Part shown: positions 51,644 through 60,323 of the stretch, piece by piece | Position numbering within the stretch: the first letter of the stretch is position 1 | How the letters are laid out: each line of letters starts with the position of its first letter | Assembly: GCF_009649845.1 (NCBI RefSeq) | Contig: NZ_WJIE01000013.1 | Coordinates: 1 to 64,000 of the forward strand | From: Polyangium spumosum | GTDB taxonomy: Bacteria; Myxococcota_A; Polyangia; Polyangiales; Polyangiaceae | DNA length: 64,000 bases | Direction of reading: 5' to 3' | The notes under the pieces: model-generated | The model's database searches: none | What the model saw: only the letters and a program-made list of their open reading frames with translations | What the model was told of the DNA's origin: nothing | Translations under genes and position numbers: made by a program

Positions 51644-53107
51644 TCAAGGCTCGCGAGCGCTCGGTGGGGGAATGGACTGCGGGAAGGAAAAGACGCCGTC
51701 CGGATCGTACTTCGCCTTGATGGCCGCGAGCCTCGGGAGGTTCGCCCCGTAGTAGGCCGTCGGCCAGTCCTCGACCAGGATATCGATGTAATTCACGTAG
51801 GCGCCCCTCGTGTAGGGCAACATCGCGCGGCGGAAATGGTCGACCCACGCGATGAACCTGGCCTCGTCCCTCGGATCCTCCCAGTACGACTGATACTGCA
51901 TGCTGCAGAGCGCCTCGCGGTGGGGGAACGCCGTCGCGTCGGGCGCGATCCTGGCCACCGCGCCGCCATAAGCATTGAGGTGCACGAGGCAGCGGGGGCT
52001 CGGCGCGCGCTCGAGCTCCGCGATCATCGTCGCGATCGCGTCGCTGCCGAAGGGCTCGTACGCATAGGCGGAGGTATTCTTGAATTTCCGCTGCGTCTGC
52101 CGCACGGGTGACGTCCAGGCGTCGGCGTCACCCCCGAGCTCGGCGAATTCGCCGATGGCCTGCATGTAGGGCATGCGCCGGATGGACAAACTCGTCGGCG
52201 CGGCGGCGGAGAGGAGCGGGTCGAGCAGCGCGCGGAGCTCGTCCGCTCCTCCGCCCACGAGCTGGCCCCCGCATCGGACCCTGCCGCTGCCGAGCAGGCT
52301 GAGCCCACACGTGAGGCGATCGTCGGCATACGGCGCGAAGTCCTGCCAGGCCGTGAGGACCTGGGCGAGGTCGCCCTTGCGCCACGAGAGGTCGAACACG
52401 GTGACGTCGGGGATCGGGTGAACCTCGAACGTGAAAGCGGTGACGATACCAAAATTGCCGCCGCCGCCCCCGCGTGAGGCCCAGAGGAGGTCCGGTTCGT
52501 GGGTCTCGTCCGCGAAGATCACCTCGCCCGCGGCCGTGACCATTTCGACGGCCCGCAGGCTGTCGCAGAGGAGCCCCAGCGTGCGGACGAGCGCGCCGTG
52601 CCCGCCGCCGAGCGTCAGCCCGGCGACGCCGACCGTGGGGCAAGAGCCCGCGGGGAGCGTGACGCCGACCTCGCCGAGCGAATCATAGACGTGCAGGAGC
52701 GAGGCGCCGGCCTCGATGACGGCCGTGCGCCGATCCTCGGCGACGCGTACGGTTCGCATGTCGCTCACGTCGATGACGAGCGCGTCGTCCGCGGTCGAGT
52801 ACGCCTCGTAGCAATGCCTCCCGCTCCGGGGCCGGACGGGGACGCCACGCGCGCGCGCCCATCGAATGGCGTTCACGACATCGTTTACATTCTGGCAAAA
52901 AACAATGGCGAGCGGATGCCTGGAGAAGCGCCCATTGTACGATTCGCGGGCATCTTCATATCCGAGATCTCCAGGGACGACGACGCGGCCCGTGAGGCGC
53001 TCTCCCTGCACGGCGCCGGCGGCGCCGGGCTCGAGGCCCGCCGCGAGCGCGGCGCCGCTCGCGCCGGCCATTTGCAGGAACTGTCTCCGGGAGGAGCGGC
53101 TTCGCAT
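51644..53107 (-). CDS. Berberine-bridge-type FAD oxidase, Tat-exported
   Basis: The product has 487 residues from ATG 53107. The Tat-like start MRSRSSRRQFLQMAG has the twin Arg and a following hydrophobic stretch (GASGAALAAGLEPGAAGA). The FAD-binding PCMH fold shows both sites of bicovalent flavin: His98 in VRPRSGRHCYEAYS and Cys156 in LPAGSCPTVGVAGLTLGGGH. The C-terminal berberine-bridge segment (YVNYIDILVEDWPTAYYG, LAAIKAKYDPDGVFSFPQ) is complete. It probably oxidises a sugar or alcohol in the periplasm, producing hydrogen peroxide. The substrate cannot be told from the sequence. It diverges from the methyltransferase gene. Confidence 0.87.
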   Translation of the reverse strand: MRSRSSRRQFLQMAGASGAALAAGLEPGAAGAVQGERLTGRVVVPGDLGYEDARESYNGRFSRHPLAIVFCQNVNDVVNAIRWARARGVPVRPRSGRHCYEAYSTADDALVIDVSDMRTVRVAEDRRTAVIEAGASLLHVYDSLGEVGVTLPAGSCPTVGVAGLTLGGGHGALVRTLGLLCDSLRAVEMVTAAGEVIFADETHEPDLLWASRGGGGGNFGIVTAFTFEVHPIPDVTVFDLSWRKGDLAQVLTAWQDFAPYADDRLTCGLSLLGSGRVRCGGQLVGGGADELRALLDPLLSAAAPTSLSIRRMPYMQAIGEFAELGGDADAWTSPVRQTQRKFKNTSAYAYEPFGSDAIATMIAELERAPSPRCLVHLNAYGGAVARIAPDATAFPHREALCSMQYQSYWEDPRDEARFIAWVDHFRRAMLPYTRGAYVNYIDILVEDWPTAYYGANLPRLAAIKAKYDPDGVFSFPQSIPPPSAREP

Positions 53108-53199
53108 GGCGAAGCGTCGAAGCAAGGGGCGCGCCGTGGGCCTTCGTCGTCATGCAGCCGCCTCTTGCGGACGCGTCGAAGATACCTTGAACTACAGGA

Positions 53200-55560
53200 A
53201 TGAACGCCGCCCGGAGGCTGCACGCGGAGCTGCGTGATCTGCGGATCAGGCTCCACCGCGACCTCTGCCGGAGGCACCCGGACCGAGCCCCGACCGACCT
53301 GCTCCGATCGACCCAGACCCTCCTCGATCGAGCCCTGTTCATCGCCTTCGCCGAGGAGCGAGGCCTGTCGCCGGAGGATACCCTCGAAAGCGAGCTCTTC
53401 GCGCCGAACGAGGACATCGACGGGCTCGACGTCACCGACGTGATGCGCGCCGAGCTCGCGAAGCTCGCGGCGTACGAGCATCGAAAGGACGTGTCCGTGG
53501 AGGACCTCGGCCACGTCTTCGAGCGATCGATCGCCGACCTCGAAGAGCTGCGTGGTCATCGCGGGCCCAGCCGGCGAAAGACCGAGGGGGTCTTCTACAC
53601 GCCCGCGTTTCTCGCGCGTTTCCTCGTCGAAGAGACGCTCGGGCGGGTGTTCGAGGAGCGGTGGCAGGTGGCCCTCGCCGCGCACGGGCCCGAGGCGAGG
53701 CGGGCGTATCGAGAGGACCTCCGGACGATCCGCGTGCTCGATCTCTCCTGCGGCGCGGGCGCGTTTCTGCTCGCCGCGTTCGAGGCATTCGCGCGTGAAT
53801 ACGAGCGCGTGAACGCGGGGCTCGATGTCGCGGAGACGGTGCTCCACGAGAACCTCTTCGGGGTCGACGTGAGCGCCGAGTCGGTGGAGATCACGAAGCT
53901 CTCCCTGTGGCTGAAGACCGCCGCGCGCGGGCGCAGGCTGACCTGCCTCGACGAGAACATCCGATGGGGAAACAGCATCATCACCGACGGGCGGGTCGAC
54001 CCTCGCGCGTTCGATTGGAGCGCGCGCTTCCGGGAAGGGTTCGACGTCGTGATCGGAAACCCGCCCTACGTGCGGCACGAGCTCCTCACGAGGTACAAGG
54101 AGCACCTCTCGGCGACGTACCGGGCTCATCATGGGATGGCGGATCTGTTCGTGTATTTCTTCGAGCGCGGCATTTCGGTGCTGAAGCCGGGCGGGCGGCT
54201 CGGGTTCATCGTGGCGAACAAGTGGCTGCGCGCGGGGTATGCCGAGCCGTTGCGCAGGCTCCTCGCGACGGAGACGCGCCTCGAGTCGATCGTCGACTTC
54301 GGCCACGCGCCGATCTTCCCCGACGCCGACGCTTTTCCGTGTGTCGTGACGCTCGCGAAGCCGGAGGGCCCCGCGCCCTCCGCGCTCCATGACGTGCACG
54401 TGACCATGTTCCCGCGGGAGGAGCTCTCGGCGAGCGCCGTCCCCGAATACGTCCGGCAGCATCGATATCCCGTGCCGCAATCACGATTCGACGCCGCCCC
54501 GTGGAGCCTCGAACCGCCGGCGCTCCAAGCCTTGATGGCCAAGCTCCGATCCGCGGGGGCGCCGCTCACCGAGTTTGCCGGGACGAAACCCTATTATGGC
54601 ATCAAGACGGGGTGCAACGAGGCGTTCGTCGTCGATCCCTCCACGAGGGACGCGCTCTTGCGGGCCGATCCGCATTGCGGCGAGCTCATGAAGCCATTTT
54701 TGCGGGGGCAGGACATCGATCGGTGGGTCGCGACGCCGTCGAATCTGTGGATGCTCTACATCCCCTGGGACCTCGACATCCGCCGTTTTCCTTCCGTGCT
54801 GCGTCACCTCGAAGGGCATCGTGATACCCTGGAGGGCCGCCCGGAGGTGAAGGCCGGGCGTTTTCCGTGGTTCGCCCTCAGCCGGTATGCGGCCGATTAT
54901 GCGCACCTCTTCGCGGTGCCGAAGATCTGTTATGCGGATCTGGCCTGGAGGAGCGAATTCTGCCTCGACGAGCGGGGCACGTTTCTGAGTGATCTCTGCT
55001 TCATGATCCCCACAAAGGACCCGTGGGTCCTCGCGGTCCTCAACGCGCCGCTGCTCTGGGCCTATCTCTGGCGCAACGTCGTGCACGGCAAGGACGAGGT
55101 CCTGCGGCTGAAGAGCATGTACATGGAGTCCATTCCCATCGCGACGCCGCCGCGAGCGGCCCGCGACGAGGCCGAGCCGGCCGTCGCCAGGCTGATCGAA
55201 TCGACGAAGGAGAGCCACCACGCGCGCGCGGCCGTCCTCGATTCGTTACGTTCGCAATTCGCCGTCGCGGAGCCCGGGAACAAGCTCTCCGATTTCGCGT
55301 CGCTCGACGCGGACGCGTTCGTGCAGGAGGTGTTGAAGCGTCGGCCGAAGGCCGCGGGCAAGCTGAGGGCGGCCGAGATGAAGGCGCTCCGCGAGATGTA
55401 TGCGGACGAGGCTTTGCCGATGCGGGAGCGACGGCGGGAGGCGCTCGGGCTCGAACGGCGGCTGTCGGCGCTGGTGAACGAGGCGTACGGGCTCACGGCG
55501 GAGGAGGTGGCGCTTTTGTGGAAGACCGCGCCGCCGCGGATGCCGTTCGGGCCGGGGTAG
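53200..55560 (+). CDS. Type IIG-like DNA methyltransferase lacking its nuclease domain
   Basis: The product has 786 residues. SAM-binding motif LDLSCGAGAFLLAAFEAF, catalytic NPPY at 287-290 (VVIGNPPYVRHELL), and target-recognition region ~430-640 (YYGIKTGCNEAFVVD, FLRGQDIDRW). It is clearly related to the protein at 55991-59320 but starts at the position matching that protein's residue ~226, so the N-terminal nuclease domain is absent; about 42 residues after RGL-PEDT are also missing. It should methylate adenine, if active. The start is close to weak AGGA; a decayed 5' part cannot be excluded. N-terminal helices match LRDLRIRLHRDLCRRHP. Confidence 0.85.
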   Translation: MNAARRLHAELRDLRIRLHRDLCRRHPDRAPTDLLRSTQTLLDRALFIAFAEERGLSPEDTLESELFAPNEDIDGLDVTDVMRAELAKLAAYEHRKDVSVEDLGHVFERSIADLEELRGHRGPSRRKTEGVFYTPAFLARFLVEETLGRVFEERWQVALAAHGPEARRAYREDLRTIRVLDLSCGAGAFLLAAFEAFAREYERVNAGLDVAETVLHENLFGVDVSAESVEITKLSLWLKTAARGRRLTCLDENIRWGNSIITDGRVDPRAFDWSARFREGFDVVIGNPPYVRHELLTRYKEHLSATYRAHHGMADLFVYFFERGISVLKPGGRLGFIVANKWLRAGYAEPLRRLLATETRLESIVDFGHAPIFPDADAFPCVVTLAKPEGPAPSALHDVHVTMFPREELSASAVPEYVRQHRYPVPQSRFDAAPWSLEPPALQALMAKLRSAGAPLTEFAGTKPYYGIKTGCNEAFVVDPSTRDALLRADPHCGELMKPFLRGQDIDRWVATPSNLWMLYIPWDLDIRRFPSVLRHLEGHRDTLEGRPEVKAGRFPWFALSRYAADYAHLFAVPKICYADLAWRSEFCLDERGTFLSDLCFMIPTKDPWVLAVLNAPLLWAYLWRNVVHGKDEVLRLKSMYMESIPIATPPRAARDEAEPAVARLIESTKESHHARAAVLDSLRSQFAVAEPGNKLSDFASLDADAFVQEVLKRRPKAAGKLRAAEMKALREMYADEALPMRERRREALGLERRLSALVNEAYGLTAEEVALLWKTAPPRMPFGPG

Positions 55561-55774
55561 TCGCCGAGGCGTCGCGCGCGAGCGAGGCGCGAGGCGGGTG
55601 GGCGCGTCCCGGAGGCGCGTGGGCGCAAGAAAATGTCGCGTGGGCAGGAGGCGAAGTCGCGCGCGAGGGGCGGTGGGGCGAGCGTGCGTGAGGCGCGCGT
55701 GGCGCGTGCGCGAGGTCGGGTCGCGCGCGCATGACGTGGAGATCGTTCGGGAATGTCAGGAAGGCGTGCGCGCG

Positions 55775-55829
55775 CGTCTCCAGGTCGCGCGGGCACGAGG
55801 GGAAGGCGTGCGCGCGCGACCTGGAGACG
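55775..55829. promoter_or_regulatory. 17-bp inverted repeat with 21-nt loop
   Basis: CGTCTCCAGGTCGCGCG (55775-55791) is perfectly complementary to 55813-55829. It may act as a terminator for the first R-M gene or as a protein-binding site upstream of the second. It stands eight bases before the direct-repeat series. Confidence 0.6.
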
Positions 55830-55836
55830 GGCGCAC

Positions 55837-55901
55837 GAGACCTTCGGGTATCGTGCGCGAGACCTTCGGGTCGTGTGCGCGAGACCTTCGGGTGTCGTCG
55901 A
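55837..55901. repeat. Three 22-bp direct repeats upstream of the R-M gene
   Basis: GAGACCTTCGGGT begins at 55837, 55859 and 55881, exactly 22 bp apart. A related GAGATCGTTCGGGA occurs near 55740. Equal phasing of about two helical turns suggests binding sites for a regulator, comparable in layout to the operator boxes found upstream of some R-M genes. Confidence 0.65.
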
Positions 55902-55990
55902 GGGGTGAACTTACGTTGTCCGTGGATGTGGGTGTGTGTGCTGCTTGAAGTTCTTGCGTTCGGGCGGTAGGTGCCCTTAACTGCCGCGCC

Positions 55991-58900
55991 ATGAGCCTCT
56001 CGCGGACCCGCTTGCCCCTGTTTCATGCAGGCATCCTCAAGCAGCGTCTGTCAGGACACACGTTTCCTGCGGATCTCGATGCACGCCATGAGATTTTGAA
56101 GAAATGGGTCCTGGCGCAGCGGGCCGGGAAGCTCGATTCGGCCAAGGAGGTCGAGCTGCACGGGGAGTTCCTCGGCGATGTGTTCGGTCGGGCGCTCGGG
56201 TATCGGACGCGCACCGGGTCGGGCGCGGGCGCGTGGGAGATCTCGGCCGAACGCACGATGGGGGGCGGGGGAAAGTCGGCCGATGGTGCGCTCGGGTTTT
56301 TCGCGCCAGGCAAGCCCGCCGTGGTGCTCGCGCCGATCGAGCTGAAGGGCGCCAAGCGCTCGCTCGATCACGCGATGGGTCGGGTCCACACGCCGGTGCA
56401 GCAGGCCTGGGATTACGCGAATCACTCGCCCGGCTGTCGCTTCATCCTCGTGTCCAATTACAAGGAGACGCGGCTTTACAGCACGGCCCGCACGCCGGAG
56501 GCCTACGAGAGTTTCCTCCTCTCGGAGATGGAGGACATCGAGGCGTTCAAGCGCTTCTACCTCCTCCTCGGCCGCGAGCACCTGCTCCCGGCCGAGCCCG
56601 GGGGCGTCTCGTTCGTCGACGAGCTGCTCGCCGCGTCGGTGAAGGAGGAAGCCGACGTAACGAACCGGCTCTACGTAGAATATCGTGACCTGCGAAAGAA
56701 GCTCTATCGGGACCTTTGTCGGCGACACCCGAACCTCCCCGCGGCCGACGTTCTCCAGTACGCGCAGACCATCCTCGATCGGATCCTGTTCATCGCCTTC
56801 GCCGAGGATCGGGGCCTTTTGCCGAAGGACACGATCAAGAACACCTGCGATTACCGGAATAAGTTCAGGCCGGTGCCCGTGTGGGAGAACTTCTGCGCCG
56901 TGTTCCGGTGGATCGATAAGGGGCACGAGGCGGAGCGCTTCCCCGAGTACAACGGCGGGCTCTTCGCGCCGAACACGAACATCGACGAGCTCGAAGTCAC
57001 GGACGAGATGTGCGCCGAGTTCAAGAAGCTCGCGGCGTACGACTATCGAGACGACGTCTCGGTGGACGTGCTCGGGCACATCTTCGAGCAGTCGATCACG
57101 GACCTGGAGGAGCTGCGCGGCAATTCGGGGATCGTCTTGCCCGATCAGCCGAAGCTCTCCAAGCGAAAGGCCGAGGGTGTCTTCTATACGCCCGCGTTCA
57201 TCACGCGGTTCATCGTCGATCAGACGCTCGGGCGGGTGTTCGAGGAGCGGTGGCAGGCGGCCCTCGGCGCGCACGGGCCAGGCGCGAAGAAGCTGAAGGA
57301 GGGGTCGCCCGCGTGGAAGGCGGCGTGGACGGCGACCTACGAGGCGTATCGAGAGGACATCAAGAAGATTCGCGTGCTCGATCTCTCCTGTGGATCGGGC
57401 GCGTTCTTGATTGCCGCGTTCGACGCGTTGTCACGCGAGTACGAGCGCGTGAACGCCGAGCTCTCGGAGCTGAACAAGGGCCAGGCGACGATCTTCGACC
57501 TCACGAAGACGGTGCTCAACAACAACCTGTTCGGGGTCGACGTGAACGCCGAGTCGGTGGAGATCACGAAGCTCTCCCTGTGGCTGAAGACGGCCGAGCG
57601 CGGACGGAAGCTCACGTACCTGGACAGCAACATCAAGTGGGGCAATAGCATCGTCCGCGATCCGATGATGGATCCGCTGGCGTTCGACTGGACGACGGGC
57701 GAACACGTGCGAGCCCTCTTCGATCCGCCGACGGCGCCCGAGGCGGCGGAGATCAACGCGCGCTGGCGTGAGGGGTTCGATGTCGTCATCGGCAATCCAC
57801 CTTATGTGCGGCAAGAGCTCCTGACGAAGATCAAGGATCATCTGCAGGCGAACTACCGTGCGTATCATGGAATGGCGGATTTGTTCGTGTACTTCTTCGA
57901 GCGGGGGATCTCGGTGCTCAAGCCGGGAGGGCGGCTCGGGTTCATTGTCGCGAACAAGTGGCTACGCGGGGGGTATGCGGAGGCTCTGCGTAAGCTCCTC
58001 GCGGCGGAGACGGAGCTGGAGACGATCGTGGACTTCGGCCATGCGCCGATTTTCCCGGACGCCGACGCCTTCCCATGCGTGGTGACCCTCGCGAAGCCGG
58101 CGAGCGCATCGCCCTCTCCATCTCATGAGGTGAACGTGACCATGTTCCCCCGGGAGGAGCTCGCAGCCAACGCCATTCCTGAGTACGTTCAACAGCACCG
58201 ATACCCCGTGCCACAGTCGCGCCTCACTGCCGCTCCGTGGAGCCTCGAACCATCGGCGCTGGAGGCCTTGATGGCCAAGATTCGAGCCGCGGGTGTGCCG
58301 CTCACCGAGTTCGCGGGCGTCAAGCCGTATCGGGGCATCGTGACCGGTTACAACGAAGCGTTCATCATCGACACCGCCACGCGGAACCGGCTCGTATCCG
58401 AGGATCCCCGGTCTGCAGAGGTGATCAAGAAATACCTTCGAGGCCAGGACATCGATCGTTGGGCATCCGAATGGGGGGGGCTCTGGATGATTTTTGCCAG
58501 GCATGGGTTCGACATCTCCTCGTACCCAGAAATCGAGCAGCATCTCCTGCAATTCAAGGACTCCCTCGAGCCGCGGCCGCGCGACTACCGGGGGTCGAAC
58601 TGGCCCGGTCGTAAGCCTGGCGCTTACAAGTGGTTCGAATTGCAGGACGCCGTCGACTACTGGCAACGATTCGAGCAACCCAAGATCGTCTATCAGGTCA
58701 TCCAGTTCCACCCAGCATATGCCATCGATCGCACCGGGCTGTACCTCAACGACAAGGGGTTCTTCATCCCCAGCACCGACTCGTGGCTGCTAGCCGTCCT
58801 CAATTCTCCGCTCATGTGGTGGCACAATTGGCGGTACTTGACGCATCTCAAGGACGAGGCGCTGACGCCCCTCGGCGTAAAGATGGAAAATTTGCCGATC

Positions 58901-59320
58901 GCCGCCCCAGCACAGGCGATGCGCGACGAGGCAGAGCCGGCCGTCGCCAGGCTGATCGAGCTGACGAAGAAGAACCACGACGCGCAGGCAGCCGTCCTCG
59001 ATTCGCTGCGTACACAATTCACCGTCGCGAAGCCGGGGAACAAGCTCGCCGACTTCGCCTCGCTCGACTCCGACGCGTTCGTGCACGAAGTGCTGAGGCT
59101 CCGCCCCAAGGCCGCGGGCAACCTCAAGGTCGCCGAGCTGAAGGCGCTCCGTGAGATGTACGCCGACGAGGCCCTCCCCATCCAGGAACGAAGGCGCGAA
59201 GCGCTCGGGCTCGAACGGCGGCTGTCGACGCTGGTCAACGAGGCCTACGGGCTCACGTCCGAGGATGTGGCGCTCCTCTGGGATACGGCGCCGCCGCGAA
59301 TGCCCTTCAAGCCGGCCTGA
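55991..59320 (+). CDS. Type IIG restriction endonuclease-methyltransferase
   Basis: The product has 1109 residues. An N-terminal nuclease domain carries the PD-(D/E)XK pattern Asp98 in GKSADGALGFF and Glu117-x-Lys119 in VLAPIELKGAKRSLD. Helices, then the adenine methyltransferase core follow: SAM motif LDLSCGSGAFLIAAF (~463), NPPY 602-605 in VVIGNPPYVRQELL. The target-recognition region (~790-1000; RGIVTGYNEAFIIDTATRN, KIVYQVIQFHPAYAIDRTG) differs strongly from the upstream paralogue, while the rest is highly alike. It should cleave and modify the same site, like Eco57I-type enzymes. Its stop lies 1 bp from the convergent gene's stop. Confidence 0.88.
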   Translation: MSLSRTRLPLFHAGILKQRLSGHTFPADLDARHEILKKWVLAQRAGKLDSAKEVELHGEFLGDVFGRALGYRTRTGSGAGAWEISAERTMGGGGKSADGALGFFAPGKPAVVLAPIELKGAKRSLDHAMGRVHTPVQQAWDYANHSPGCRFILVSNYKETRLYSTARTPEAYESFLLSEMEDIEAFKRFYLLLGREHLLPAEPGGVSFVDELLAASVKEEADVTNRLYVEYRDLRKKLYRDLCRRHPNLPAADVLQYAQTILDRILFIAFAEDRGLLPKDTIKNTCDYRNKFRPVPVWENFCAVFRWIDKGHEAERFPEYNGGLFAPNTNIDELEVTDEMCAEFKKLAAYDYRDDVSVDVLGHIFEQSITDLEELRGNSGIVLPDQPKLSKRKAEGVFYTPAFITRFIVDQTLGRVFEERWQAALGAHGPGAKKLKEGSPAWKAAWTATYEAYREDIKKIRVLDLSCGSGAFLIAAFDALSREYERVNAELSELNKGQATIFDLTKTVLNNNLFGVDVNAESVEITKLSLWLKTAERGRKLTYLDSNIKWGNSIVRDPMMDPLAFDWTTGEHVRALFDPPTAPEAAEINARWREGFDVVIGNPPYVRQELLTKIKDHLQANYRAYHGMADLFVYFFERGISVLKPGGRLGFIVANKWLRGGYAEALRKLLAAETELETIVDFGHAPIFPDADAFPCVVTLAKPASASPSPSHEVNVTMFPREELAANAIPEYVQQHRYPVPQSRLTAAPWSLEPSALEALMAKIRAAGVPLTEFAGVKPYRGIVTGYNEAFIIDTATRNRLVSEDPRSAEVIKKYLRGQDIDRWASEWGGLWMIFARHGFDISSYPEIEQHLLQFKDSLEPRPRDYRGSNWPGRKPGAYKWFELQDAVDYWQRFEQPKIVYQVIQFHPAYAIDRTGLYLNDKGFFIPSTDSWLLAVLNSPLMWWHNWRYLTHLKDEALTPLGVKMENLPIAAPAQAMRDEAEPAVARLIELTKKNHDAQAAVLDSLRTQFTVAKPGNKLADFASLDSDAFVHEVLRLRPKAAGNLKVAELKALREMYADEALPIQERRREALGLERRLSTLVNEAYGLTSEDVALLWDTAPPRMPFKPA

Positions 59321-59321
59321 C

Positions 59322-60323
59322 TCAATCCTCCCGCACGAGCAACTTCCGCAAGAGCTCCAGCGGGTGGAACCCCAGCATCTCCTCGAGCTCGCCATGCTGC
59401 GCGCTCTTCGCCGCCCGGTCCCAGAGTCGCTCGATCGACCCCGCCACCACGCCGTTCGAATCGACCCGCTCCATCACCTTGCGCATCGCCAAAAACGCCG
59501 CGCGGCTCGCGTCGATCCCGAGCGGGATCGCCATCGGCGCGGGCAAGGGCGAGAGGATGATGTCGCGCACGAACGCCGCGCGCGCCCACGCGCCGGGGCT
59601 CGGGTCCACCTCGAGCGCGCGGAACGTCGCCGTCTCCGCGTAACAGCCGAACGCGATCGGGCCGACGCGGTCCTCGATCGCGTGCGAGAGGTGCCGGTAG
59701 TCGCGGCGCCAGTCGCCCGAGAGCAGGCCCATGTCGCCGCGGATCTCGTCGGGGCCGAGGATCAAGCTGATCCCGTCCTGCCCGCGCTTGAGCGCCACGC
59801 TCGCCCAGAGCTCGCCGCCCTCGAAGATGCCGAGCACCAACGCCTTGCCGATCGGACACACCGCGTCGAGGCTGCGGCGCACCATGCCCGGCGTCGGGAT
59901 CGGCACGCCCCGGAGGCGCAAGGGCCACGCCGCGAGGCGGCCCGCGGCGAGCTCGTCCTGCGCGAGCGAGAAGAGCGTGAGCGTCTGCGTCGCGAGGTCG
60001 TCGCCCCTGCGCGCGCGCGCCGCGAAGCGCTCCATGATGCGCTCGAGCGTGCCGCTCTCGAGCACGATGCAGAAGCTCGCCTCGTGACGCTTCGCCAGCT
60101 CCTCGGCCGTCATCGGCCACGGGATGTCGTCGATCCCGAGCCGGCCCACGTTCGTGTGCAGGAGCTTCTGCAAGCGGCCGCGGTCGTGGACGGCGATCAC
60201 GCCGCCACGCGGGCGGTTCGGATCACGCAGCTCGCCCGAGGTTCGTCGCGGCCGGAAGAGCGACAGGACGCGGACCCAGTCCGTCGCGGTGAACCCCTCG
60301 AAACGTACGTGGGGGGAGAGCAC
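59322..60323 (-). CDS. Conserved hypothetical protein
   Basis: The product has 333 residues starting MLSPHVRFEGFTATDWVRVL. It contains no signal peptide or obvious catalytic motif. Conserved-looking parts are NRPRGGVIAVHDRGRLQKL, GTLERIMERFAARARRGDD, GGELWASVALKRGQDGISLI and GPDEIRGDMGLLSGDWRRDY. The length and mixed alpha/beta content suggest a cytosolic enzyme or regulator. I do not recognise a family. It lies 33 bp upstream-to-downstream of the VanW gene on the same strand, so both could be transcribed together. Confidence 0.7.
   Translation of the reverse strand: MLSPHVRFEGFTATDWVRVLSLFRPRRTSGELRDPNRPRGGVIAVHDRGRLQKLLHTNVGRLGIDDIPWPMTAEELAKRHEASFCIVLESGTLERIMERFAARARRGDDLATQTLTLFSLAQDELAAGRLAAWPLRLRGVPIPTPGMVRRSLDAVCPIGKALVLGIFEGGELWASVALKRGQDGISLILGPDEIRGDMGLLSGDWRRDYRHLSHAIEDRVGPIAFGCYAETATFRALEVDPSPGAWARAAFVRDIILSPLPAPMAIPLGIDASRAAFLAMRKVMERVDSNGVVAGSIERLWDRAAKSAQHGELEEMLGFHPLELLRKLLVRED

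What the first reader, a model, noticed from the sequence alone, without database searches (positions are those of the whole stretch)
53200..59320. Tandem type IIG enzymes with divergent target-recognition regions and one nuclease-less copy
The two proteins are highly similar in methyltransferase core and C-terminus, but the target-recognition part (copy 1 ~430-640, copy 2 ~790-1000) differs sharply. Copy 1 has lost ~225 N-terminal residues including the nuclease. It could act as a solitary methylase with a new specificity, a protecting partner or a store of specificity sequence for recombination.
Basis: partly seen in the sequence, partly recalled or inferred. Interest (0 to 1): 0.55.

Follow-up and report, generated by a model that had tools for sequence, protein, structure and literature searches.

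The report
Restriction enzyme beside nuclease-free twin
Two neighbouring genes are sister copies of one combined DNA-cutting and DNA-marking enzyme; one copy has lost its cutting part and carries a different DNA-reading part, so it probably marks DNA at a different sequence, which is a modest new twist on a well-known bacterial defence enzyme.

Summary
Copy 1 (53200-55560, 786 aa) and copy 2 (55991-59320, 1109 aa) are sister Type IIG enzymes: about 80% identical in methyltransferase core and C-terminus, 42% in the target-recognition domain (TRD). Copy 1 lacks the nuclease and a conserved spacer segment but keeps motif I (one serine changed to alanine) and NPPY. The MTase part holding NPPY and the C-terminus are as conserved as in copy 2; the spacer and the MTase N part drift faster. 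Best reading: copy 2 restricts; copy 1 is a solitary m6A methyltransferase of different specificity. No activity was tested.

New here: the TRD is a two-part mosaic. Its halves, matching MmeI's TRD-N and TRD-C by position, have different histories: copy 1's first half groups with locus L049, its second half does not, while copy 2's second half resembles L049's. Protecting-partner and cassette-store readings have little support. None of 18 relatives with room on both sides has a second copy; one clear nuclease-less homologue exists elsewhere (L120). None of five same-genus genomes carries the pair at this variable site. New variant of a known kind.

The parts
53200..55560 (+). Copy 1: 786-aa nuclease-less Type IIG-like adenine methyltransferase (partial helical spacer, MTase, TRD, C-terminal helices)
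   Evidence: ORF; Pfam Eco57I, N6_Mtase, MmeI_Mtase above cutoff, TaqI_C just below; PADLOC REase_MTase_IIG from profile position 299 on; AF2 mean pLDDT 87.6, best PDB matches CamA
54730..54909 (+). Copy 1 variable part of the TRD-N-like half (residues 511-570), closest to locus L049 (53%)
   Evidence: alignment; identities; tree 100/98 with L049, clade with copy 2 rejected p-AU 5.5e-4
54910..55134 (+). Copy 1 TRD-C-like half (residues 571-645), outside the family's majority type
   Evidence: 41% to copy 2, 43-44% to L086 and L066; clade with copy 2 rejected p-AU 0.010
55561..55990 (.). Spacer between the two genes: a repeat dispersed in this genus, with a 22-bp tandem array at 55836-55898
   Evidence: 40 matches in the own genome (40 of 412 candidates were scored) and matches in five of five same-genus genomes, one of them weak; array
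55991..59320 (+). Copy 2: 1109-aa Type IIG restriction-modification enzyme (nuclease, helical spacer, MTase, TRD, C-terminal helices)
   Evidence: ORF; Pfam; PADLOC REase_MTase_IIG E 3.7e-134 over residues 49-1053; AF2 mean pLDDT 83.3
55991..56656 (+). Nuclease portion of copy 2 (about residues 1-222), with conserved D98, E117 and K119; absent from copy 1
   Evidence: family alignment; beta strands 82-118 and 151-176 in the model; that it is PD-(D/E)XK is inferred
58466..58669 (+). Copy 2 variable part of the TRD-N-like half (residues 826-893), a common type
58670..58894 (+). Copy 2 TRD-C-like half (residues 894-968), the majority type (single-linkage cluster of 31 of 45 sequences)
51652..59312 (.). 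Variable-site insert holding an FAD-dependent oxidase gene and the enzyme pair; flanks conserved in same-genus genomes
   Evidence: right flank aligns from 59311-59315 in 5 of 5 genomes; left flank to 51651-51662 in 4 of 5, the fifth fetched stretch showing no left-flank match

Best explanation
Copy 2 is a self-sufficient Type IIG (Eco57I/MmeI-like) enzyme that methylates adenine in one motif and cuts unmethylated DNA. Copy 1 is a sister of copy 2 that lost the nuclease and part of the spacer that couples nuclease to methyltransferase, and carries a different TRD mosaic. It most likely works as a solitary m6A methyltransferase on a second motif that differs in the parts read by both TRD subdomains, without protecting copy 2's sites. 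Shown: sequence relationships, deletions, conservation pattern, TRD tree conflict, predicted fold. Inferred: nuclease and methylase activity, base methylated, different motif, expression.
For: The core tree groups the copies 100/99 among 37 sequences, whereas the first TRD half groups copy 1 with L049 (100/98) and the second-half data reject copy 1 + copy 2 (p-AU 0.010) and copy 1 + L049 (p-AU 0.0038). Copy 1 keeps motif I (S469A aside), NPPY and 98 of 124 columns conserved in at least 90% of 24 relatives; copy 2 keeps 119 of 124; most of copy 1's misses are deleted nuclease or spacer columns. At sites where the copies differ and a majority of 20 relatives agrees, departures of copy 1 against copy 2 are 6 against 7 in the C part of the MTase (with NPPY) and 3 against 2 in the C-terminus. 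Pairwise dN/dS is 0.26 outside the TRD and 0.09-0.21 in windows over copy-2 residues 545-790. Copy 1's model is confident and best matches CamA, a known orphan MTase (Z 32.9, 540 aligned, rmsd 5.5, 22% identity). A separate nuclease-less homologue exists in another genome (L120, 797 aa). PMC4833311 (passages): MmeI's TRD-N contacts the first two base pairs and TRD-C the rest.
Against: No expression or activity data. Copy 1 departs from the family majority 15 times against 1 for copy 2 in the spacer and 11 against 2 in the N part of the MTase, which holds the SAM-binding motif I. The motif I serine, present in 24 of 24 relatives, is alanine in copy 1. The missing 38-residue spacer segment includes residues conserved in 22-23 of 24 relatives and might be needed for folding. 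dN/dS is 0.47-0.74 in the windows over copy-2 residues 246-458, which early decay would also give. A different TRD sequence does not prove a different motif. Placement of copy 1's second half near L081/L083/L086 is weak (60/52), and the first-half data do not firmly reject copy 2 + L049 (p-AU 0.056). No promoter-like site was found at 53000-59600.
Confidence: 0.65

Rival explanations
1. Copy 1 is a decaying remnant of a tandem duplicate: the nuclease and several loops are already gone and the protein is inactive or on its way out.
For: Six in-frame losses outside the TRD; faster change in the spacer and the MTase N part, motif I serine lost; other loci show truncated pieces of the family: L079 and L080 (N-terminal pieces), L046 (C-terminal pieces).
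Against: 786 codons open with no frameshift; the MTase part with NPPY and the C-terminus are as conserved as in copy 2 (6 against 7 and 3 against 2 departures); dN/dS 0.26 outside the TRD; confident MTase and TRD model.
Confidence: 0.2
2. Copy 1 is a protecting partner that methylates copy 2's own site, for example the other strand, as recalled for M.Eco57I beside Eco57I.
For: Adjacent genes; a separate methylase beside a Type IIG enzyme is a known arrangement (recalled, no call).
Against: The TRD halves are 30% and 41% identical. In 18 of 18 loci with room on both sides, 14 of them with one intact full-length frame, no second copy of this family is present, so a partner of this family is not generally needed; unrelated methylases nearby were not searched for.
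Confidence: 0.07
3. Copy 1 mainly serves as a donor of TRD sequence that recombines into copy 2 to switch specificity.
For: Homologous sequence on both sides of the TRD, with exact matches of 45, 36, 24 and 20 bp upstream and 26 and 27 bp downstream. A shift in synonymous identity near copy-2 residue 537 (permutation p 0.03) and lower GC3 in copy 2 at 546-975 (0.77-0.80 against 0.85-0.89 elsewhere) hint at a past exchange in that tract.
Against: No recombinant seen; no conspecific genome available; the TRD is near saturation at synonymous sites, so no recent exchange there; copy 1 keeps constraint in the MTase part with NPPY, which a mere donor would not need.
Confidence: 0.06

Closest known systems
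TaqII/TaqIII twin Type IIC/IIL enzymes of Thermus aquaticus (PMC5587805, passages read)
   Same: Two paralogous single-chain enzymes in one strain, differing mainly in the TRD; both motifs shown methylated there.
   Different: Both cleave DNA, are 93% identical and lie on separate plasmids; here the genes are adjacent, more diverged, and one lacks the nuclease.
CamA orphan methyltransferase of C. difficile (PMC8187626, passages read)
   Same: Gamma-class adenine MTase plus TRD without a nuclease; best structural match of copy 1.
   Different: About 22% identical, 577 aa; the CamA alignment starts at copy 1 residue 95 or later, so most of copy 1's remaining spacer has no counterpart; the passages read mention no sister restriction enzyme.
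MmeI (Type IIL; PMC4833311, passages read)
   Same: Nuclease, helical spacer, MTase, two-subdomain TRD and C-terminal bundle in the same order as copy 2.
   Different: Remote in sequence (structural alignment to copy 1 15% identical); in the passages read its TRD is described as two subdomains, not as exchanging them.
[quoted passage not shown]
   Same: Specificity units exchanged by recombination.
   Different: There whole TRDs of a separate S subunit move; here the two subdomains of one TRD in a single-chain enzyme have different histories.
BREX PglX/BrxX
   Same: Nuclease-less MTase of the same superfamily with a TRD of two subdomains (PMC11842806, passages read).
   Different: Both copies score far below the NCBIfam cutoffs (104 and 122 against 500 bits); three neighbouring genes scanned match no BREX family.

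Membership tests
Type IIG single-chain restriction-modification enzyme (copy 2) | Nuclease, spacer, gamma MTase (motif I before NPPY) and TRD in one chain | tested here: met
   D98, E117 and K119 conserved in the family, DLSCGSG then NPPY, TaqI_C TRD, model; PADLOC match E 3.7e-134. That the N-terminus is a PD-(D/E)XK nuclease is inferred from residues and strands
Type IIG single-chain restriction-modification enzyme (copy 2) | Cleavage at a distance from the site, SAM stimulation | not testable with these tools
   Needs the protein
Type IIG single-chain restriction-modification enzyme (copy 1) | N-terminal nuclease in the same chain | tested here: not met
   Residues 2-221 of copy 2 have no counterpart; the frame has only three codons upstream of the ATG; no remnant elsewhere in the window
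Orphan (solitary) m6A methyltransferase (copy 1) | Gamma-class MTase with motif I and NPPY, plus TRD, without nuclease domain | tested here: met
   one motif I serine is alanine
Orphan (solitary) m6A methyltransferase (copy 1) | No restriction enzyme of the same specificity in the cell | tested here: inconclusive
   The neighbour has a different TRD; motifs unknown; other MTases of the genome were not typed
Orphan (solitary) m6A methyltransferase (copy 1) | Methylates DNA | not testable with these tools
   No methylome
Eco57I-like RM plus protecting M pair | Both proteins read the same site | tested here: inconclusive
   TRD halves 30% and 41% identical, which speaks against it; motifs unknown
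BREX PglX | Passes the curated family score | tested here: not met
   BREX_1_MTaseX 104 and 122 bits against a cutoff of 500

The most novel reading that the evidence does not exclude
In this family the two subdomains of the single-chain TRD (TRD-N reading the first bases, TRD-C the rest) are natural cassettes that recombine separately, giving a small combinatorial code of motifs. Copy 1 is a new combination fixed in a nuclease-free, purely epigenetic enzyme beside its restriction sister.
Probability: 0.35. Interest if true: 0.6.

Novelty: new variant of a known kind. Interest (0 to 1): 0.4.

Why it matters
It gives a natural pair in which one ancestral enzyme appears to have split into a restriction enzyme and a DNA-marking enzyme with another target, and it shows which parts a Type IIG enzyme can shed when the nuclease goes (the nuclease and a spacer segment). 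If TRD-N and TRD-C really assort separately, the motif of a Type IIG enzyme might be predicted half by half from known relatives, and new specificities made by swapping halves rather than single residues.

Tried and rejected
Recombinants in the same species: not testable; no conspecific genome was offered. Five same-genus genomes have only weak matches (best E 5e-12, three candidates scored per genome) and no copy at this site.

Tandem pairs elsewhere: 44 loci examined; of 18 with room on both sides none has a second copy; of 36 with room on at least one side only L046 has extra pieces, two C-terminal remnants. The 18 include three frame-broken genes (L047, L060, L077) and the nuclease-less L120. 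With a looser cutoff, short C-terminal tails also appear downstream in L067 (26 aa) and L042 (27 aa).

Nuclease-less relatives: several short frames (L010/L077/L083, one locus; L050, L054, L063, L121) looked nuclease-less. L121 is cut by a contig end, L050 has under 300 bp of contig upstream, and the others are fragments or frame-broken. Only L120 is a clear one.

Which copy changed its TRD: evidence conflicts. Copy 2's TRD type is also in L084 (53% and 68%), a weakly supported sister in the core tree (51/58), and in the TRD copy 1 departs from the family majority more often (7 against 0 and 22 against 2); both point to copy 1. Lower GC3 inside copy 2's 546-975 tract points to copy 2. Left open.

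Defence hotspot idea: at the same site three same-genus genomes (G001, G003, G004) hold other genes, with no obvious defence genes by eye; no family search was run on them. Phages and plasmids: only relatives under 60% identity; the best-ranked is a 45% match on a Leptolyngbya plasmid. Promoter scan empty.

Papers: in the listings of seven text searches I saw no report of TRD-N/TRD-C exchange in single-chain Type IIG/IIL enzymes; the only paper holding at least three of the terms TRD-N, TRD-C, MmeI and restriction was the MmeI structure. Subscription journals and REBASE were not searchable.

Full report
Observation. Two adjacent + strand genes, 53200-55560 and 55991-59320, encode 786 and 1109 residues. 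Aligned, they share 78% identity at copy-2 residues 390-780, 42% at 800-972 and 82% at 976-1105. Copy 1 lacks copy-2 residues 2-221 and five further in-frame stretches outside the TRD (38, 8, 17, 11 and 21 residues). Both hit Pfam Eco57I, N6_Mtase and MmeI_Mtase; TaqI_C is just below cutoff in copy 1 and above it in copy 2. Both hit the PADLOC Type IIG profile PDLC03609, copy 1 from profile position 299 on and copy 2 from position 42.

Family. A translated search of genome contigs gave 39 related loci, by their record titles from cyanobacteria, Verrucomicrobia, Planctomycetes, Chloroflexi, Myxococcales, Alphaproteobacteria and others. In the own genome only these two genes are close; the other MTase hits are at most 36% identical over parts. 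Of 44 loci examined, 18 have room for a second copy on both sides and none has one; 14 of the 18 hold a single intact full-length frame. In a phylum sample 21 of 377 genomes matched copy 1 at E 1e-40 or better, the own genome included, with two candidates scored per genome. One of them, G374, holds a 797-aa nuclease-less homologue (L120:8103-10496, minus strand) with the copy-2 type of TRD; nothing in the 18-kb stretch matches copy 2's nuclease.

What copy 1 lost and kept. In 24 relatives the lost N-terminus carries conserved D98 and K119 (23 of 24 each) and E117 (at least 80%), and the lost 38-residue spacer segment (286-323) is filled in 96% of cells with W298, F305, G311 and N321-G323 conserved in 22-23 of 24. 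Copy 1 keeps 98 of 124 strongly conserved columns and copy 2 119; most of copy 1's misses are deleted nuclease and spacer columns, and within the MTase the notable one is S469A in motif I. Both copies share L465-S466 where relatives have P-A (24 of 24 at 465, 23 of 24 at 466), a mark of common descent. Where the copies differ and at least half of 20 relatives agree on a residue, copy 1 is the odd one 15 against 1 in the spacer, 11 against 2 in the N part of the MTase (which holds motif I), 6 against 7 in the C part (which holds NPPY), 7 against 0 and 22 against 2 in the two TRD halves, and 3 against 2 in the C-terminus. This fits loss of constraint on what served the nuclease while methylation stayed selected, but the fast N part of the MTase would also fit early decay. 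Pairwise dN/dS is 0.26 outside the TRD, 0.47-0.74 in windows over residues 246-458 and 0.09-0.21 over 545-790.

TRD mosaic. The TRD splits near copy-2 residue 894. By position and length the halves match TRD-N and TRD-C of MmeI, which contact the first two and the remaining base pairs of its site (PMC4833311, passages); this correspondence is inferred, not superposed. Among 45 sequences, single-linkage clusters (45% for the first half, 55% for the second) give five first-half types (a to e) covering 41; four sequences (L092, L076, L012, L101) fall outside. Type a has 13 members, 10 with the majority second half; type b 20, 17 with it; type c is L049 with it and copy 1 without; type d 3 of 3 with it; type e 0 of 3. 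So the same first half occurs with different second halves in three types; two of the three exceptions in type a (L061, L073) are remote members. Trees on 37 sequences (8 of 45 dropped beforehand as partial or remote): the core unites the copies (100/99) and rejects copy 1 + L049 (p-AU 4.5e-13). The first half unites copy 1 with L049 (100/98) and rejects copy 1 + copy 2 (p-AU 5.5e-4), though copy 2 + L049 is only borderline (0.056). The second half rejects copy 1 + copy 2 (0.010) and copy 1 + L049 (0.0038), does not reject copy 2 + L049 (0.105), places copy 2 beside L049 and L120 (86/86), and only weakly places copy 1 near L081/L083/L086 (60/52). Pairwise identity correlates 0.27 between core and first half and 0.73 between core and second half; first against second half given the core is 0.08 (permutation p 0.07). 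The first half is thus the freer one. The tested clades were chosen after seeing identities, so the p values lean optimistic.

Structure. AlphaFold2 models: copy 1 mean pLDDT 87.6, copy 2 83.3. Copy 1's best PDB matches are CamA (Z 32.9, 540 aligned, rmsd 5.5), then BrxX, M.BseCI and MmeI. Copy 2 matches the same set plus BpuSI and DrdV.

Setting. The pair and an FAD-dependent oxidase gene fill a site whose right flank (from about 59313, at copy 2's stop) aligns in 5 of 5 same-genus genomes and whose left flank (to about 51651) aligns in 4 of 5, the fifth fetched stretch showing no left-flank match; neither copy matches in any of the five stretches. The 430-bp spacer between the genes is a repeat dispersed in this genus, with matches in five of five genomes that lack the pair at this site (one, G003, only weak). 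Hence the spacer looks like local DNA, and the pair was either formed here or invaded by the repeat. Fourfold-site identity between the copies is 0.72 at residues 223-545, 0.57 at 545-800 and 0.73 in the C-terminus (breakpoint near 537, p 0.03), which may mark an exchanged tract, but the copy that received it cannot be named: TRD types point to copy 1, GC3 to copy 2.

Precedents. TaqII and TaqIII are twin enzymes differing in the TRD with two motifs methylated in one strain (PMC5587805, passages). CamA is an orphan gamma MTase (PMC8187626, passages). TRD movement is known for S subunits (PMC3077401, passages). For PglX, residue changes across its motif were designed and tested (PMC11341690, passages). 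The combination here (adjacent sisters, one nuclease-less, with a mosaic TRD) is a new variant of a known kind.

Verdict. Copy 2: Type IIG enzyme. Copy 1: most likely an active solitary m6A methyltransferase of different specificity (0.65).

Noticed in passing
window 55561-55990: The spacer between the copies is a GC-rich repeat dispersed through this genus (40 matches in the own genome, where only 40 of 412 candidates were scored, and matches in five of five same-genus genomes), with a 22-bp tandem array.
   Followed up: partly
window 51652-59312: Genus-level variable site between two apparently convergent conserved genes; in four same-genus genomes 7.5-12.1 kb of other DNA lies between the flanks, in a fifth at least 12.8 kb.
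   Followed up: partly
L120:8103-10496 (minus): Separate nuclease-less homologue of 797 aa with copy-2-like TRD halves (57% and 73%) and no match to the family's nuclease in the fetched stretch.
   Followed up: partly
L046:4671-5347; L067:13478-13555; L042:7259-7339: C-terminal remnants of the same enzyme family lie downstream of the intact gene (L046 two pieces, L067 a 26-aa tail 96% identical, L042 a 27-aa tail 59% identical), as if copies had come and gone at the 3' end.
   Followed up: no
L058:7104-11348; L062:2954-7180; L065:5700-9755: Enzymes of about 1350-1415 aa share the TRD (51-57%) and C-terminus (45-57%) of copy 2 but are longer at the N-terminus and have a long insert in the MTase domain, suggesting exchange of C-terminal halves between enzyme types.
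   Followed up: no
L079:8413-9417 (minus); L080:7003-7605 (minus): Truncated N-terminal pieces of the family (nuclease plus start of spacer; nuclease part only) in other genomes, without an MTase match in the fetched stretch.
   Followed up: partly
window 51644-53125 (minus): Berberine-bridge-type FAD oxidase gene inside the variable site; only 34-43% identical proteins in the five same-genus genomes.
   Followed up: no
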